Origin: Hymenobacter sp. J193 | GTDB taxonomy: Bacteria; Bacteroidota; Bacteroidia; Cytophagales; Hymenobacteraceae | DNA length: 64,000 nucleotides | Assembly (NCBI RefSeq): GCF_024700075.1 | Contig: NZ_JAJONE010000001.1 | Span: 434,001-498,000 of the forward strand | Direction: 5' to 3' | In this document: in pieces, positions 25,162 through 59,439 of the stretch | Layout of the letters: every line of letters starts with the position of its first letter | How positions within the stretch are numbered: the first letter of the stretch is position 1 | Translations under genes and position numbers: made by a program | The notes under the pieces: generated by a model | The model's database searches: none | What the model saw: only the letters and a program-made list of their open reading frames with translations | Told to the model about the DNA's origin: nothing

Positions 25162-25539
25162 TTATAATCTCCTAGTATCCCAAAATGCCTGTCGAATCCC
25201 CTGCAGCACCCAGGCCAATTGCTCAAACACCAGCTTATTTTCCACCCGCACTACATAAATGCCCAAGCTGCTCAGATAAGCAGTACGCGTTTCGTCTCTT
25301 CCCTGACCCACCACATCAAAATGGCCTTGCCCATCCAGCTCTATGGCCAGCCGTTCGGCGGGGCAGTAGAAGTCCAGCACATACGGTCCCACGCTATGCT
25401 GTCGCCGAAACTTACGTCCGTCCAGCTGCCCGTTTTGCAGAGACTTCCACAGCGTTGCCTCGGCTGGCGTGAGGTTGCTCCGCAGCTCACGGCGGGAGCC
25501 TTTTAGCTCCTGGCGGTTGTGATGGCAGGTGTTGGGCAT
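25162..25539 (-). CDS. DUF559 (VSR/MTES_1575-like) endonuclease-fold protein
   Basis: A 125-residue PD-(D/E)XK-like nuclease of the DUF559 family. Start at ATG 25539 (MPNTCHHNRQELKG). Motifs: LRSNLTPAEATLWKSLQ, GRKFRRQHSVGPYVLDFYC (catalytic Asp region), LAIELDGQGH (Glu/Asp-Gly) and GIYVVRVEN. It is the usual length of these solitary genes, which are often found inside repeat-flanked cassettes. Here it lies between two rtcB genes and is enclosed by inverted repeats (25067-25129 and 25609-25670). Whether it cuts RNA or DNA, or is just a mobile cargo gene, is unknown. Confidence 0.85.
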   Translation of the reverse strand: MPNTCHHNRQELKGSRRELRSNLTPAEATLWKSLQNGQLDGRKFRRQHSVGPYVLDFYCPAERLAIELDGQGHFDVVGQGRDETRTAYLSSLGIYVVRVENKLVFEQLAWVLQGIRQAFWDTRRL

Positions 25540-25608
25540 GAATAAATATACAGTAAGGCGGATGCATATACCAATGCACGATTTGGCACTCTGACGGCGC
25601 GGACGGCT

Positions 25609-25670
25609 CAACCACCCCAGCGGCAGCTTCGCCGCCGCATCCCCTCCTTTGGTAAGGAGGGGAGTTTGTC
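25609..25670. repeat. Inverted repeat, right arm of DUF559 cassette
   Basis: Begins CAACCACCCCAGCGGCAG and ends TTTGGTAAGGAGGGGAGTTT, the inverse of the left arm at 25067-25129. Confidence 0.75.
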
Positions 25671-25737
25671 GTTCTGCCAACATAAAAACACCCATCGGGA
25701 ATTCCGACGGGTGTTTTTGCTTCTACCCACATGCCGC

Positions 25738-27363: not shown

Positions 27364-27461
27364 AGCCGGAGCAACAGACCGACCCGCGCACATTGGGGTA
27401 CACCTGAGGCATACTACCCGACAAGACAGGTCGAAGTAACGCGGGCCTACGGCATCCGGCC
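27364..27461 (-). ncRNA. Y-RNA-like RNA 8 (no tRNA module)
   Basis: Last unit of the array. Outer stem GGCCGGA (27461-27455) pairs with TCCGGCT (27370-27364). The conserved internal loop is TGCCGTAG on the 5' side and TTGC on the 3' side. Second stem GGCCCGCG (27447-27440) pairs with CGCGGGTC (27388-27381), followed by TTACTTCG. Unlike most sister units it has no T arm or D arm; inside is only a hairpin based on ACCTG/CAGGT. It therefore looks like a minimal Ro-binding RNA. Confidence 0.65.
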
Positions 27462-27479
27462 GGGAAGGCAGGTAGGTTC

Positions 27480-27548
27480 GGGCAAGGGGTACAGGTGGGC
27501 AGCCTCAGATTTTCAGTCGAAGGAATGCTGCCCGACGCCACCTTGCCC
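27480..27548 (-). ncRNA. Long hairpin between array units 7 and 8
   Basis: GGGCAAGG (27548-27541) pairs with CCTTGCCC (27487-27480), and inside it GGGCAGC pairs with GCTGCCC. It has a strong stem but lacks the TGCCGTAG/TTGCC loop, so it may be a processing signal, a terminator-like structure or a decayed unit. Confidence 0.45.
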
Positions 27549-27555
27549 GCCCACC

Positions 27556-27691
27556 CCTGATTGGGCAACAACTACGCAGCCCGTATGTACTCTAACCAGC
27601 TGAGCTACTGCTCCCGAAGAAGCAGGAAGGACTCGAACCTCCGACCCCATCGACCCAATCGAAGTAGGGCGGCGCTACGGCACCAATCAGG
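27556..27691 (-). ncRNA. Y-RNA-like RNA 7 with UUCG-capped permuted tRNA mimic
   Basis: Outer stem CCTGATTGG (27691-27683) is perfectly paired with CCAATCAGG (27564-27556). Loop TGCCGTAG/GTTGC. Second stem CGCCGCCC with GGGCTGCG (one mismatch), then TACTTCG. The tRNA-like part comes in permuted order: T arm GGAGG-TTCGAGT-CCTTC, acceptor strand CTGCTTC, a TTCG tetraloop, acceptor strand GGAGCAG (7 of 7 paired), then TA and D arm GCTC-AGCTGGTTA-GAGT. Because the acceptor end is closed there is no 3' CCA, so it cannot be charged unless cut. Confidence 0.8.
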
Positions 27692-27702
27692 AAAATAAGC
27701 TG

Positions 27703-27853
27703 CTTACCGGGGCAAAAAACGGCGGGCGCACATAGGGAATTGCGCTTTCAACCACTCAGCCACATTGCCTTGGGAAAGACAATGACGGGATTCGAACCCG
27801 CGAATCTTACGAAACAACTTGCGAAGTAGCGCCCGCCTACGGCACCCGGCAAA
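27703..27853 (-). ncRNA. Y-RNA-like RNA 6 with permuted tRNA-Ser-like mimic
   Basis: Outer stem TTTGCCGGG pairs with CCCGGTAAG; second stem GGCGGGCGC is a perfect 9-bp match to GCGCCCGCC; the conserved loop lies between, then TACTTCG. T arm GCGGG-TTCGAAT-CCCGT is preceded by TTTCGTAAGATTC, like a tRNA-Ser variable arm. Acceptor strands CATTGTC and GGCAATG pair 7 of 7 across an eight-base loop. D arm TGGCTGAGTGGTTGAAAGC is also Ser-like. Encoded on the minus strand. Confidence 0.8.
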
Positions 27854-27865
27854 CAGATGAAAAAA

Positions 27866-28003
27866 CGTTGGGGCAACAGGGCGCCCAGCCTGCATATCCT
27901 GCTCTACCAATCTGAGCTACCACAGCCGAAGCGGTGGGCGGGATTCGAACCCGCGACCCGGGCATTAAAAGTGCGAAGTAAGGCTAGGCTACGGCACCCA
28001 ACG
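27866..28003 (-). ncRNA. Y-RNA-like RNA 5 with UUCG-capped permuted tRNA mimic
   Basis: Outer stem CGTTGGG pairs with CCCAACG and is followed by a T6 tract, as in an intrinsic terminator. Loop TGCCGTAG/GTTGCC; second stem GCCTAGCC with GGCTGGGC (8 pairs, one wobble), then TTACTTCG. T arm GCGGG-TTCGAAT-CCCGC, acceptor strands CCACCGC and GCTGTGG (6 of 7) joined by TTCG, then TA and D arm GCTC-AGATTGGTA-GAGC. A classic T-loop/D-loop pair, so an L-shaped tertiary fold is plausible. Confidence 0.8.
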
Positions 28004-28016
28004 AGTGTGTAAGAAT

Positions 28017-28173
28017 CATTCTGACAGGGCAACAAGCGGAGCGCTCTTATTTACCGGCGCGTCTACATTTCGCCACCCGCTACCCAAAGGCAGCGAGGCA
28101 GGGTTTGCACCTGCACGCCTTGCGGCACCAGTTCTGAGCGAAGAAATGCGTTCCTACGGCACCTGTTTGAATG
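28017..28173 (-). ncRNA. Y-RNA-like RNA 4 with permuted tRNA-Leu-like mimic
   Basis: Outer stem CATTC-AA-ACAGG pairs with CCTGT-CA-GAATG. Loop TGCCGTAG/GTTGCC; second stem GGAACGC with GCGCTCC (6 of 7), then TTTCTTCG. T arm GCAGG-TGCAAAC-CCTGC, acceptor strands CTCGCTG and TAGCGGG (7 pairs counting wobbles) closed by CC-TTTG-GG, then TG and a Leu-like GCGAAATGTAGACGC D arm. Confidence 0.75.
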
Positions 28174-28184
28174 ATGAAGAAAAA

Positions 28185-28437
28185 TTCGCCGGGGTAAAAA
28201 AGGCCCCACTTCTGCTCTACCATTGAGCTACGGGCCCAGATGTTATAGCAGTTTTGGGAACAATGTAGAGACGCATACTTGCGTCTCATCGTCTGTGCCG
28301 CATGTTCAACGAGGAGACGCAAGTATGCGTCTCTACAGCTTCATGACACGGTTTCTGAATCTGCTATCGGTATTGGTGGGCCCGATAAGAGTCGAACTTA
28401 TAACACGAAGTACGTGAAGGCCACGACACCCGGTGAA
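28185..28437 (-). ncRNA. Y-RNA-like RNA 3, acceptor loop invaded by a miniature element
   Basis: Outer stem TTCACCGGG with CCCGGCGAA (one mismatch); loop GTGTCGTG in place of TGCCGTAG and TTACC in place of TTGCC; second stem GGCCTT/GGGGCC; then TACTTCG. T arm ATAAG-TTCGACT-CTTAT is followed by acceptor strand CGGGCCC and ACCA. About 134 bases later comes the exact partner GGGCCCG, then TA and D arm GCTC-AATGGTA-GAGC. The spacer contains a ~125-nt palindromic insertion (28244-28368). The divergent loop suggests loss of function. Confidence 0.7.
28244..28368. mobile_element. Miniature palindromic insertion inside RNA 3
   Basis: The ends ATAGCAGTTTTGGGAAC and the inverse GTTTCTGAATCTGCTAT flank inverted GAGACGCATACTTGCGTCTC words. 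The inner words recur at 33451-33525 and the end words at 44891-44949, so this is an interspersed family. Confidence 0.7.
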
Positions 28438-28455
28438 GGTATCGGCCACTGGCGC

Positions 28456-28577
28456 AAGCAAGGGCCGGGGCAACGGGCTGGAAGGCCCATGGGGAGTCGA
28501 ACCCCGGGCGTGGCTCATGGACCACTGCCCTCAACCAGACGAAGAAATGCCCTCCGACGGCACCCGACCGCCTGCTT
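28456..28577 (-). ncRNA. Y-RNA-like RNA 2 (T arm only)
   Basis: Outer stem AAGCA...GGTCGGG pairs with CCCGGCC...TGCTT. Loop TGCCGTCG/GTTGCC; second stem GGAGGGC with GCCTTCC (7 pairs counting one wobble), then TTTCTTCG. Inside are a strong hairpin GGGC-A-GTGG/CCAC-GCCC and a T arm GGGG-TTCGACT-CCCC. No D arm or acceptor stem is evident, so the tRNA mimicry is partial. Confidence 0.65.
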
Positions 28578-28590
28578 GGCCGCGGCGAAA

Positions 28591-28705
28591 GGAAACAGGC
28601 AATAAACCCGACCAGCCTACCAATACTCCGTGGTATGAGCACGGCGAAGAACTAAATCCTCCATCGCAGTTGGGCGAAGCATGGCTGATCTACGGCACTG
28701 TTTCC
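28591..28705 (-). ncRNA. Y-RNA-like RNA 1 (degenerate tRNA module)
   Basis: First unit in transcription order. Outer stem GGAAACAG is perfectly paired with CTGTTTCC (28598-28591); loop TGCCGTAG/ATTGC; second stem GATCAGCC with GGCTGGTC (8 pairs, one wobble); then GCTTCG. The interior shows a T-arm-like GGAGG-ATTTAGT-TCTTC and a CCGTG/CACGG hairpin; the D arm is not convincing. It lies 43 bases after the PARG stop. Confidence 0.65.
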
Positions 28706-28748: not shown

Positions 28749-29582
28749 TCAGGTAAGGGCTTGTTCAAAAGCCTGTAAGGTTGCATAAGGCGGCTTCGGG
28801 TCGAATACCGCAAAATCGATGCGCCGGAACTGGTTGCGAACCGCTGGTTCGGCCAGGGCCTCGGCAAACAGCTCCGCCATCTGCGCGGGGTCATTGCCGA
28901 ATACACCGCATCCCCAGGCTCCGAGCACCAGGGCCTCACTCCCGTTTTGGGCGGCTACTGCCAGCACCTGCTGAATCCGGCGCTGCATGGTAGGCACCAG
29001 CTGGTCGAGCAGCTCCGGGTTGTTGCGGCGCAGTGCCCCGGCATTCACGGCCGGCGCGGTGATGATGTCCACTTGGTAGGGCTCGGTTAGACACTCGCCT
29101 TCATCCGTCAGCAGCACCGGCACGCCGGGTGAGTAAATGAGGTAGTCACTGTACAGGCCATTGAGGTGCGCATTGTGCTGGTACATTTCGGTGAACTGCG
29201 CAATGCACGGATATAGTCCCGTGGAGCGCGCCAGGCTTTCTTCCTGGGCCTGGCTGCCGCCCAAAAAGCCCCCGCCCGGGTTGCGGGCCGATGCAAAGTT
29301 CAGGCAGGTAACCCGCTGGTACTGGCTGGCCAGATCAGCCGCCGCGGCGAGCGTGGTGGCATGATAGATCCGCACTTCCGCCGGTTTGGTAGCAGCGTCA
29401 TCGGAGCCTTTCGGGGTCAGCAAAGCGGCTGCTTCCTGCGGCCGGTACAATCGGCTTTCGGCTTCGGCAGTGCGTTGCCAATTGCCAATATCGACTTGGG
29501 TGCCGGTAGCCGTTTGGTAGCTTCCCTGCTTTAGCGCGTGGAGCGTTTGGCGGGCTATTTCCTGTCGTTGTTCGCGGTTCAT
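28749..29582 (-). CDS. Microbial-type poly(ADP-ribose) glycohydrolase (TIGR02452, macrodomain)
   Basis: A 277-residue macrodomain-fold PARG. The catalytic signature NPGGGFLGGSQAQEESLARST lies near residue 105 (GGG...QEE loop with the catalytic Glu pair). VDIITAPAVNAGALR and ALVLGAWGCGVFGNDP form the ADP-ribose pocket. It removes ADP-ribose from targets. Macrodomain hydrolases are known companions of RtcB/Ro RNA-repair loci, possibly reversing ADP-ribosylation of RNA ends or of repair proteins; here that is inference from position between Ro60 and the RNA array. Start ATG 29582. Confidence 0.88.
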   Translation of the reverse strand: MNREQRQEIARQTLHALKQGSYQTATGTQVDIGNWQRTAEAESRLYRPQEAAALLTPKGSDDAATKPAEVRIYHATTLAAAADLASQYQRVTCLNFASARNPGGGFLGGSQAQEESLARSTGLYPCIAQFTEMYQHNAHLNGLYSDYLIYSPGVPVLLTDEGECLTEPYQVDIITAPAVNAGALRRNNPELLDQLVPTMQRRIQQVLAVAAQNGSEALVLGAWGCGVFGNDPAQMAELFAEALAEPAVRNQFRRIDFAVFDPKPPYATLQAFEQALT

Positions 29583-31334: not shown

Positions 31335-32615
31335 CTACAGGTACTTGGCCAGGGTTAGCTGGGCGTCGCGGGCCCAGCGTTTCAGCCAGTACCGTTCGTC
31401 CTCGTTGAGGCCCCGATTGTAGCGGCCACGGACCTGGACAATCTGGCGGTTGGGCAGCACCTCCAGCGTGAGGGCTCGTGCGCCCTCAATTTTAAGCGAG
31501 AAAATGCCACAGCGCCCTTGCTGGCAGGATTGCAGATAGGAGGCCACGCAGTGGCGCAGGGCCCGGCCCTCATCCACCAGTTCACTGTAAGTCCGCAGCT
31601 GACTGATGCGCACCCGCTCGTCTTCGCCACTGACGAAGTCGGGGATGGGCAGCGGCACCCAGGTGGCCGTGAGCAAGTGTCCGGCGTGCCGGGGCATCCG
31701 GCTTAGCTTCTGGTGCCACTGCTCCACCGCCGCCAGCATACCCGCCATGGTGCGGCCTTGCAGCGAGAAACCCGGCTGCGGCGGCTCCGGCTCGATGCCT
31801 ACCGTGCGTTTATGGTGAATCCAGTCGCAGACGGGCCCGAAGTGACGTGGGTCGACCATGGGCGAGGCCGCAAAGAAATCCGCCACACGCAGCCAGAACT
31901 CGTCGTCGGGGCCTATTTCGCGGCCCAGCCGGGATTCCAGCACCGGCCCTATCCACGCCAGAGCACCCCGGGCTGCCAGCTGACCGTAGCGCAAGGCTTC
32001 GAGGAAGCTGCAGCCTCCGGGAGCCCGCCGCATTTCGTGCTCCAGGCGCTTGGTGAGAGGTACCGGCACGCTCGCAAAGCTGCGCAGCGCCCGGCCACTG
32101 CCCAAGTGAATGGTTAGCTCCCGCAGATCTACGCCACTATGCTGAAACTGGCCGCTGCTCCAGGGCTCCAGCACCCACTGCGGTACGTCGCCGTACTGGT
32201 CGAAAAGGTGGCGCAGCAGGCTATCCAGCTGCCGGAACACGTTGCGGCTGCCGGGCTGCCAGTCGTCCAGCTCCCGCACCCGAAACAGGTAGTAGCGGGT
32301 GAGGCCGCCCACGGCGGCCACCGTGTCGGGCCGCTGCAGCAGGTCGGTGCGCTTGGCCGCTAGCTCCAGCAGTACTTTACGCGTCACTTGCCGCTCGGTA
32401 AGCGTGCGGCCCAGCACCCAGTGCTCAAAGCGGCCAAGCAGCGGCGAGCGGGGTTCTACCTGTTGCTGAAGCTCGGCCAGCGTGTAAAAAGAAAACAGAA
32501 ACTCTATTTGCCGGGCCGCCGACCATTTGCGCCAGTCGACGCGGCGGGTAAGCGCGGTTAGGGAGTGGCAGGCAGCCTGGGCCTGTCGGGGAGGGGGTTT
32601 GTGGCGGTTAGCCAT
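31335..32615 (-). CDS. PcfJ-domain protein
   Basis: A 426-residue protein of the PcfJ-like family, named after an Enterococcus conjugative-plasmid gene; biochemical role unknown. The recognisable C-terminal block is LVDEGRALRHCVASYLQSCQ followed by GIFSLKIEGARALTLEVL, QIVQVRGRYNRGLNEDE and a closing WLKRWA. The N-terminal two thirds are helical without known motifs. It is the first gene of the minus-strand RNA-repair cluster, 95 bases before Ro60. Start ATG 32615. The link to RNA repair is positional only. Confidence 0.8.
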   Translation of the reverse strand: MANRHKPPPRQAQAACHSLTALTRRVDWRKWSAARQIEFLFSFYTLAELQQQVEPRSPLLGRFEHWVLGRTLTERQVTRKVLLELAAKRTDLLQRPDTVAAVGGLTRYYLFRVRELDDWQPGSRNVFRQLDSLLRHLFDQYGDVPQWVLEPWSSGQFQHSGVDLRELTIHLGSGRALRSFASVPVPLTKRLEHEMRRAPGGCSFLEALRYGQLAARGALAWIGPVLESRLGREIGPDDEFWLRVADFFAASPMVDPRHFGPVCDWIHHKRTVGIEPEPPQPGFSLQGRTMAGMLAAVEQWHQKLSRMPRHAGHLLTATWVPLPIPDFVSGEDERVRISQLRTYSELVDEGRALRHCVASYLQSCQQGRCGIFSLKIEGARALTLEVLPNRQIVQVRGRYNRGLNEDERYWLKRWARDAQLTLAKYL

Positions 32616-59100: not shown

Positions 59101-59186
59101 TACCACCTGCTCCAAAATATTTTCAAAATTATTTGCACGAATAAATTCTGGTTGTACATTTGCCCTGCGCTCCATGCCACGGAGCA

Positions 59187-59297
59187 CTTATCAAGAAAGG
59201 CGGAGGGACAGGCCCTGTGATGCCTTAGCAACCAGTAGAAATACCAGGTGCTAAATCCTGTTCTGAGTCGGCTTCGGTCGGCGCGGAAGAAGATAAG
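59187..59297 (+). promoter_or_regulatory. SAM-I (S-box) riboswitch
   Basis: Starts CTTATCAAGAAAGGCGGAGG, then GACAGGCCCTGTGATGCCTT and AGCAACCAG, the SAM-I core, and closes with AAGATAAG, which pairs with CTTATC. A T7 run follows at about 59353-59359, so control may be by termination. It precedes the PLP enzyme at 59440 and likely represses it when SAM is plentiful. Confidence 0.92.
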
Positions 59298-59439
59298 TTA
59301 AAAGATGCCTACCGTCTGCAGCGGTCTTGCTCTTCTGACTTGTCGGGAGGGCTTTTTTTATGCTCTTTCGGTAAGAAATCTTGCATAAGTGTCTGGGCAA
59401 CAAGGTGCGTTTTCGTCTAACCACAAAACGGCCAAACCC

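What the first reader, a model, noticed from the sequence alone, without database searches (positions are those of the whole stretch)
27364..28705. Array of eight Y-RNA-like noncoding RNAs between Ro60/PARG and rtcB
By hand folding, eight consecutive minus-strand units share two outer helices whose sequences differ completely from unit to unit but remain paired: GGAAACAG/CTGTTTCC, CGTTGGG/CCCAACG, CCTGATTGG/CCAATCAGG, GCCGGA/TCCGGC, and inner GGCGGGCGC/GCGCCCGCC, GATCAGCC/GGCTGGTC, GCCTAGCC/GGCTGGGC. Between the helices the loop is conserved as TGCCGTAG on the 5' side and TTGCC on the 3' side, and CTTCG always follows the inner helix. This is strong covariation inside one locus. The loop resembles the Ro-binding element I recall for bacterial Y RNAs (GNCGAAG-like facing UUGACC-like), and Ro60 is encoded just upstream on the same strand. 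Published Y RNAs are usually one to a few per locus; an array of eight distinct members seems unusual.
Basis: partly seen in the sequence, partly recalled or inferred. Interest (0 to 1): 0.96.

Follow-up and report, generated by a model that had tools for sequence, protein, structure and literature searches.

The report
Y RNA array hiding permuted tRNAs
Next to its gene for the RNA-binding protein Ro60, this Hymenobacter-like bacterium encodes a row of eight RNA units that are predicted to bind Ro60; five contain a rearranged transfer-RNA sequence, two of these with a complete anticodon arm, and they would likely serve as baits for enzymes that attack real transfer RNAs.

Summary
Eight minus-strand units lie between PARG and rtcB, behind Ro60. 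Outer and inner helices change sequence from unit to unit but stay paired. A covariance model built from relatives finds 7 of 8 units; unit 3 carries an inserted repeat. 'Y RNA' is right as far as sequence can show: the units are YrlA-like, but below Rfam's cut-off. At Ro60 loci of this genus an array is the rule (3-11 model matches).

Five units carry a circularly permuted tRNA: T arm, acceptor stem closed by a cap, then D arm. Halves resemble specific tRNAs (window: Lys, Leu, Ser, and a Pro-type anticodon loop). In 84 of 88 evaluable units across relatives the 5-bp anticodon stem is complete but split 2+3, with the Ro60-binding stem inserted between tRNA nucleotides 28 and 29. These 84 show 22 anticodons. 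Rejoined in tRNA order, 85 of 88 are called tRNAs; halves in encoded order, none. The Rfam YrlA model and the published description seen here have no anticodon arm.

Likely role (inferred): Ro60-mounted anticodon decoys for tRNA-cutting nucleases, possibly resealed by RtcB. Expression, binding and function are untested; the anticodon shows no clear excess of change.

The parts
28591..28705 (-). Y RNA unit 1; outer helix GGAAACAG/CTGTTTCC, inner GATCAGCC/GGCTGGTC; no clear tRNA module
   Evidence: no tRNA half above shuffle; R1 36.5 bits
28463..28569 (-). Y RNA unit 2; outer helix GGTCGGG/CCCGGCC; T-arm-like stretch (28 against shuffle maximum 29), no permuted D half
   Evidence: 31.5 bits
28187..28435 (-). 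Y RNA unit 3; permuted tRNA module: T arm and acceptor 3' strand 28374-28404 (followed by ACCA), acceptor 5' strand + D arm 28214-28238; Ro-type loop degenerate (TGTCGTGG)
   Evidence: (D half 32, shuffle maximum 22; T half 29, shuffle maximum 28); orthologues with short caps in L033 9785-9909 and L034 11475-11600
28265..28336 (.). inverted repeat (arms GTAGAGACGCATACTTGCGTCTC) of a genomic repeat family, inside the capping loop of unit 3
   Evidence: 42 arm matches genome-wide at up to 2 mismatches, 0 for the reversed control pattern
28024..28166 (-). Y RNA unit 4; permuted Leu-type tRNA with long variable arm; 4-bp anticodon stem CCGG/CTGG
   Evidence: both halves best = Leu (T half 43 against 27 for the next amino acid; D half 31 against 18); stem read from the sequence, pairing checked
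27866..28003 (-). Y RNA unit 5; complete permuted Lys(UUU)-type tRNA; split anticodon stem GG+GCA / TGC+CC, loop CUUUUAA, TTCG-capped acceptor
   Evidence: T half Lys 48 against 36; D half general class I; 5 of 5 pairs; aragorn Lys(ttt) after rejoining
27960..27978 (-). linker and anticodon hairpin of unit 5 (CTTC, then GCA CTTTTAA TGC CC)
27700..27856 (-). Y RNA unit 6; permuted Ser-type tRNA; 5-bp anticodon stem CAATT/AGTTG formed by the two halves, CTTCGCA in the loop place
   Evidence: D half Ser 30 against 23; T half Ser 33, nearly tied with Gly 32; stem read from the sequence, pairing checked
27554..27693 (-). Y RNA unit 7; complete permuted tRNA with Pro(UGG)-type anticodon loop AUUGGGU; split anticodon stem CA+TCG / CGA+TG; D half of general class I type
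   Evidence: (T half Pro 38 against 30; D half tied Val/His 36)
27364..27461 (-). Y RNA unit 8; short, both Ro-type helices, no tRNA module
   Evidence: 48.1 bits
29709..31133 (-). Ro60 orthologue (TROVE, vWA_Ro60; CDVSGSMQ motif)
28749..29582 (-). microbial-type PARG
   Evidence: PF10021
25738..27210 (-). RtcB RNA ligase, first copy, directly downstream of the array
   Evidence: downstream of the array in 49 of 49 loci L033-L081
23540..24988 (-). RtcB, second copy

Best explanation
The locus encodes eight YrlA-like Y RNA units, predicted to be bound by the neighbouring Ro60, five of which hold a circularly permuted tRNA sequence (two with a complete anticodon arm), and these likely act as decoys for nucleases or other factors that recognise tRNA anticodon arms. 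Shown by sequence: the unit structure; the order T arm - acceptor (closed by a cap) - D arm; resemblance of the halves to particular tRNA types; the 2+3 split anticodon stem with a 7-nt loop keeping U33; such units at Ro60 loci across Bacteroidota. Inferred: the units come from one precursor, because most spacers are short (250 of 344 at 30 nt or less); Ro60 holds the outer stem, so the anticodon loop sits beside Ro60. Inferred mechanism: an anticodon nuclease spends itself on the decoy loop. Because the acceptor ends are joined, the cut decoy would stay in one piece, and the neighbouring RtcB could reseal a 3'-phosphate/5'-OH cut. The panel of anticodons differs between lineages, as would be expected if each lineage meets different tRNA-cutting enzymes. 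Identity and structure: about 0.93. Decoy function: about 0.4.
For: Order: of 265 units from the motif finder (some are false), 132 have both halves above the shuffle 99th percentile; the T half precedes the D half in 131 of 132. Halves scored separately agree Leu-Leu or Ser-Ser in 24 of 132, expected 4.8, 0 of 10,000 permutations as high (orthologues are not independent). Anticodon arm: after the conserved CTTCG, 119 of 322 long units have a hairpin of >=3 Watson-Crick pairs with exactly a 7-nt loop, about 25 shuffled; other loop sizes 3-12 give 15-53. 100 of the 119 have U33. After dropping 7 TTC/GAA stems (93 left) and 5 without a locatable T or D arm, 88 remain: nt 27-28 pair with 42-43 in 84 of 88, against 38.9 (maximum 50) with partners re-dealt; types GG/CC 54, CA/TG 18, GC/GC 4, CG/CG 3 and others. 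Rejoined at 28/29, aragorn calls a tRNA in 85 of 88, with the loop's own anticodon in all 85; shuffled 0, encoded order 0, halves mixed between units 38. On 198 units not chosen for the hairpin: 114, shuffled 0, encoded halves 0, whole units as encoded 16. The 84 arms show 22 anticodons; A or G at position 37 in 89 of 93. All seven acceptor pairs change on both sides, and a cap starting N-CCA occurs in 1 of 88 (the acceptor is placed with 6-7 of 7 pairs in 67 of these 88), which argues against charging with an amino acid. Ro60 link. RtcB downstream in 49 of 49. In Salmonella the operon is regulated by damaged tRNAs, and the authors suggest that YrlA's tRNA-like domain might inhibit the anticodon nuclease (PMC7790460, passages).
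Against: Only 2 of 8 window units have a complete split arm; W1, W2 and W8 have no permuted tRNA. A looser breakpoint scan gives full 5/5 stems in 110 of 285 units, 41.2 expected from re-dealt D sides (maximum 54). Anticodon columns are not clearly fast-evolving: 0.11 changes per nearest-neighbour pair against 0.075 in other unpaired columns, rank 9-12 of 56. RNA folding energies are not consistently low (z from -2.93 to +0.20 for seven units); the predicted folds of W4 and W6 are not the model, and W7's anticodon hairpin folds differently. Halves mixed between units still give 38 of 88 tRNA calls. No anticodon nuclease was linked to the locus. In Salmonella, fragments of YrlA were not detected, so it was not cut by that nuclease (PMC7790460). 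No expression or binding data.
Confidence: 0.55

Rival explanations
1. The tRNA module is an effector handle: Ro60 is tethered through it to an enzyme that binds tRNA-like RNA (such as PNPase), and the anticodon arm only stabilises the module or widens the set of partners.
For: Role given for bacterial Y RNA with Ro60 and PNPase (PMC8394870, passages). Many array units lack a complete anticodon arm (5 of 5 pairs in 110 of 285 that have T and D arms).
Against: Does not explain why the loop keeps U33 and a purine at 37 while showing 22 anticodons, nor exact host anticodon loops right behind CTTCG (first match at offsets 0-2 in 41 of 208 units; all offsets 60 of 208, null mean 5.6, maximum 14).
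Confidence: 0.25
2. The anticodon arms are relics: modules were captured more than once from neighbouring tRNA genes (T half of one, D half of the next), and the arm has no role of its own.
For: The two own-genome matches of R1 outside the array (28.4 and 26.7 bits; 111 of 4201 candidates scored) cover neighbouring tRNA gene pairs, one running from within one tRNA into the next. Anticodon columns are not clearly fast-evolving.
Against: 84 of 88 split stems are paired, with several compensatory types; linker and adjoining columns are invariant over 40 units.
Confidence: 0.13
3. The units are permuted tRNA genes: RtcB joins nt 28 to 29 after the Y stem is cut out, giving a circular pre-tRNA from which the cap is removed.
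For: The rejoined sequences are called tRNAs in 85 of 88. Permuted tRNA genes are known elsewhere (PMC3978253, listing and passages; PMC3218864, listing only). RtcB lies next door.
Against: Cap begins N-CCA in 1 of 88; several caps are 4 nt, as in W5 and W7 (TTCG). The Ro60-type loop is conserved, and the host already has tRNAs for Lys(UUU) and Pro(UGG).
Confidence: 0.05

Closest known systems
YrlA-type bacterial Y RNA (Rfam RF02553)
   Same: Ro60-side stem and loop, inner helix, T arm - acceptor - D arm order, capped acceptor, next to Ro60 and RtcB
   Different: Below the Rfam cut-off (best 41.9 of 69 bits; 0 of 59 relatives' genomes reach it). Has an anticodon hairpin where the Rfam consensus has three bases (CUA). 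tRNA-type-specific halves. Arrays of 3-11 matches in 49 loci.
Salmonella rsr-yrlBA-rtcBA RNA repair operon
   Same: Ro60 orthologue, Y RNAs and RtcB in one block (PMC7790460, passages)
   Different: PARG lies between Ro60 and the array; no RtcA or RtcR among the eight neighbouring proteins scanned (not a full scan); more Y RNA units
Circularly permuted tRNA genes of algae and archaea
   Same: 3' half encoded before 5' half
   Different: Join point inside the anticodon stem at 28/29 with a Y stem inserted, capped acceptor nearly always without CCA, no evidence of splicing
tmRNA
   Same: Partial tRNA mimic in bacteria
   Different: Recalled comparison: tmRNA has a reading frame and a free acceptor end and no anticodon arm; the units here have a closed acceptor and, in part, an anticodon arm

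Membership tests
YrlA / bacterial Y RNA | Encoded beside a Ro60 orthologue | tested here: met
   R1 at >=68 bits in 8 of 11 genomes with Ro60, 0 of 137 without
YrlA / bacterial Y RNA | Terminal stem with conserved Ro60-binding internal loop | tested here: met
   TGCCGTAG-type / TTGC strands between covarying helices; aligned to the same place of the Rfam consensus. Binding itself not testable; W3's loop is degenerate
YrlA / bacterial Y RNA | Module like D, T and acceptor arms of tRNA | tested here: met
   5 of 8 window units; 3 of 8 lack it
YrlA / bacterial Y RNA | Rfam RF02553 gathering score | tested here: not met
   best 41.9 of 69 bits; 0 of 59 genomes
YrlA / bacterial Y RNA | Physical binding to Ro60 and an effector | not testable with these tools
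   needs pull-down
Circularly permuted tRNA gene | 3' half upstream of 5' half, rejoinable to a tRNA | tested here: met
   85 of 88; unselected units 114 of 198
Circularly permuted tRNA gene | Discriminator and CCA encoded, or room for end processing | tested here: not met
   1 of 88 caps start N-CCA; W3 has ACCA but no anticodon arm
Circularly permuted tRNA gene | Splicing motif at the join and mature tRNA | not tested
   no bulge-helix-bulge scan; needs RNA data

The most novel reading that the evidence does not exclude
A Ro60-mounted, RtcB-resealable panel of anticodon decoys: each bacterial lineage keeps an array of permuted tRNAs whose anticodon loops match the tRNAs that the nucleases it meets cut, so that the array reads as a record of the tRNA-cutting weapons that lineage faces.
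Probability: 0.3. Interest if true: 0.95.

Novelty: new variant of a known kind. Interest (0 to 1): 0.8.

Why it matters
Why bacterial Y RNAs carry a tRNA-like part and sit with RNA repair genes is left open in the passages seen (PMC7790460). An anticodon arm on a Ro60-type RNA gives a direct, testable link to tRNA cleavage and repair. It also indicates that a whole tRNA fold, split at 28/29 and closed at the acceptor, is kept as a mimic, and that Rfam's YrlA model at its cut-off finds none of these units in 59 genomes of relatives.

Tried and rejected
Rejected: tRNA genes proper. Aragorn finds none in the array as encoded (one tRNA in the window, elsewhere). Rfam microRNA and twister-sister hits in the array are sub-threshold and look like chance or inverted-repeat matches. 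The ATGGGGT matches at offset 9 lie in the variable region and were not counted as anticodon loops. TTC/GAA stems (mostly loop GTTGGTT) belong to another unit type and were dropped. Fast evolution of the anticodon was expected for an arms race and was not clearly seen. DUF559 beside rtcB looks incidental (1 of 80 loci). Promoter scan: one sigma-70-like site just before unit 1 (0.7 expected by chance; Bacteroidota promoters are not covered) and 7 terminator-like sites (2.8 expected), several of them the units' own hairpins, so it decides nothing. Limits: in the host tRNA set three T halves (Ile, Met, Asp) were cut short by my trimming, which may lower their scores. The 28 of 453 model matches without a Y-type start were dropped, among them the two on the other strand. 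Papers: the main YrlA papers (Chen 2014, Wang 2018) are not held, so I do not know what they print on anticodon arms or arrays. In the listings of searches (titles and abstract starts, several of them capped) I saw no report of anticodon-bearing Y RNA arrays; 'Y RNA' with 'Hymenobacter' gave 0 papers. Recalled, from no call: Y RNAs being one to a few per locus; the tRNA position rules (U33, purine 37); tmRNA's plan.
Full report
What was checked. The minus strand of 27,364-28,705 was read. It holds eight units in a row, each enclosed by an outer helix whose sequence differs from unit to unit, a TGCCGTAG-type strand, an inner helix, CTTCG, an inner part, and (7 of 8) TTGC before the outer 3' strand. 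A script recovered the outer helices of 7 of 8 units with 5-12 contiguous pairs. Unit 3 has the same plan, a more degenerate loop, and an insert in its middle. Gene order on the minus strand is Ro60 (TROVE), PARG, array, RtcB, DUF559, RtcB.

Known family. Rfam at its own thresholds finds nothing in the array. At a relaxed threshold the lowest-E match is YrlA (RF02553), at unit 5 (41.9 bits) and unit 7 (32 bits), below the cut-off of 69. In 59 genomes of relatives 35 have sub-threshold matches and none reaches the cut-off. So the units are YrlA-like, but that model does not cover them.

Relatives. One scan for the Ro60 protein gave the best 80 of 366 loci, mostly Hymenobacter, with Pontibacter, Rufibacter, Cesiribacter, Flavobacterium, Mucilaginibacter and others. 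By tblastn within the held flanks, Ro60 is in 80 of 80, RtcB in 66, PcfJ in 32, PARG in 24, DUF559 in 1. In 49 of 49 loci L033-L081 (Hymenobacter plus one Solirubrum) RtcB follows the array.

The permuted tRNA. The 39 distinct host tRNAs were cut into a D half (up to nt 26) and a T half (from the anticodon loop on), and each half was aligned to each unit; three T halves were cut short by my trimming. In the window, unit 4 matches Leu with both halves (T 43 against 27 for the next amino acid), unit 6 Ser with the D half (30 against 23) and, nearly tied with Gly, the T half (33 against 32), unit 5 Lys(UUU) with the T half (48 against 36), unit 7 Pro with the T half (38 against 30) but a general D half. 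Unit 3 has a clear D half (32) and a weak T half (29, shuffle maximum 28). Units 1 and 8 match nothing above shuffles; unit 2 has only a T-arm-like stretch. Over 265 motif-finder units, 132 have both halves above the 99th percentile of shuffles, and the T half comes first in 131. Leu-Leu plus Ser-Ser agreement is 24 against 4.8 expected, with 0 of 10,000 permutations as high; these units are partly orthologous, so the test overstates independence.

The anticodon arm. Downstream of CTTCG an excess of hairpins appears above all for one loop size: 7 nt, 90 of 208 (shuffled about 17) in the first unit set, and 119 of 322 (shuffled about 25) in the covariance-model set. Sizes 5 and 11 show a smaller excess (53 and 44). 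U33 is present in 100 of 119. After dropping 7 units of another type, 93 remain, with A or G at position 37 in 89. Five lack a locatable T or D arm. In the other 88 (from 62 loci and the window), the two bases after nt 26 of the D half pair with the two bases after the hairpin's 3' strand in 84 (re-dealt 38.9, maximum 50; shifted by -2 to +3 bases, 1 to 19). The stem is therefore 2+3 = 5 pairs, as in a tRNA, interrupted on its 5' side between nt 28 and 29, where the Y stem is inserted. Rejoined there, 85 of 88 are read as tRNAs with that anticodon; 0 when shuffled, 0 in encoded order, 38 when halves are mixed between units. Without selecting for the hairpin, 114 of 198 units are read as tRNAs after rejoining, against 0 shuffled and 0 for the halves as encoded; 16 of 198 whole units as encoded gave some call. 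The 84 arms show 22 anticodons (UUU 25, UGG 8, CUU 7, GCG 6...), occur in 61 of 80 loci and in the window, and repeat an anticodon within a source in 1 of 22 sources that have two. With free choice of the break point, 110 of 285 units have all five pairs, 78 of them broken at 28/29; re-dealing the D sides gives 41.2 (maximum 54).

Same slot, other anticodon. In 40 aligned units of the unit-5 type, the linker, stem and following bases are invariant (columns 24-31, 41-44), U33 is nearly so, and the triplet varies. Covariation across the structure exceeds every shuffle and every slid control. These 40 were chosen for a GCA/TGC or GCG/CGC hairpin, so that helix is paired by construction. All seven acceptor pairs vary on both sides, so acceptor sequence is not kept. 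Against an arms race, nearest-neighbour change at the triplet (0.11) is only slightly above other unpaired columns (0.075). Folding energies do not single the units out: z from -2.93 to +0.20 for seven units, and W4 and W6 fold otherwise.

Distribution. R1 gives 453 matches in the window and 80 loci, 425 with the Y-type start, all of these on the Ro60 strand. Loci L033-L081 hold 3-11, median 6; 10 of 49 hold eight or more. Of 344 spacers between neighbouring matches 250 are 30 nt or less, 30 exceed 150, median 18. In 19 genomes of the genus searched whole, 11 have full-length matches at E below 1e-20; the others have weak matches or none. In 148 phylum genomes, matches of 68 bits or more occur in 8 of 11 with Ro60 and 0 of 137 without (Fisher p 3.5e-11). 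At E 1e-8 the counts are 10 of 11 and 8 of 137; 6 of the latter 8 are partial, tRNA-like matches.

Origin. Two weak off-array matches in the host genome cover neighbouring tRNA genes, one from within one tRNA into the next. A T half followed by a D half is what such a pair offers, so capture from tandem tRNA genes is a simple source of the permuted order (inference).

How it may work. PMC7790460 (passages) ties the Salmonella operon with Ro60, Y RNAs and RtcB to damaged tRNAs, and proposes competitive inhibition of the nuclease by YrlA's tRNA-like domain, of which no fragments were detected. PMC8394870 (passages) describes that domain as like the D, T and acceptor arms, and gives PNPase tethering as its role. 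A retained anticodon arm fits a decoy better than a plain tether. The free acceptor sequence, the cap and the near-absence of CCA argue against aminoacylation. Since the acceptor ends are joined, a cut loop would leave one molecule that RtcB could reseal. This part is inference.

Noticed in passing
window 28265-28336: Inverted repeat of a family with arm GTAGAGACGCATACTTGCGTCTC, inside the acceptor cap of unit 3; 42 arm matches genome-wide with up to 2 mismatches.
   Followed up: partly
window 25162-25695: DUF559 gene between the two rtcB copies; found near Ro60 in only 1 of 80 relatives' loci.
   Followed up: partly
window 31335-32615: PcfJ-like protein next to Ro60; found near Ro60 in 32 of 80 loci, in some between array units and rtcB.
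   Followed up: partly
window 59185-59299: SAM riboswitch (RF00162, 78.7 bits) on the plus strand.
   Followed up: no
units 1, 2 and 8 of the window; short units of 56-99 nt in relatives: Ro60-type units without a permuted tRNA; their inner part is unexplained.
   Followed up: no
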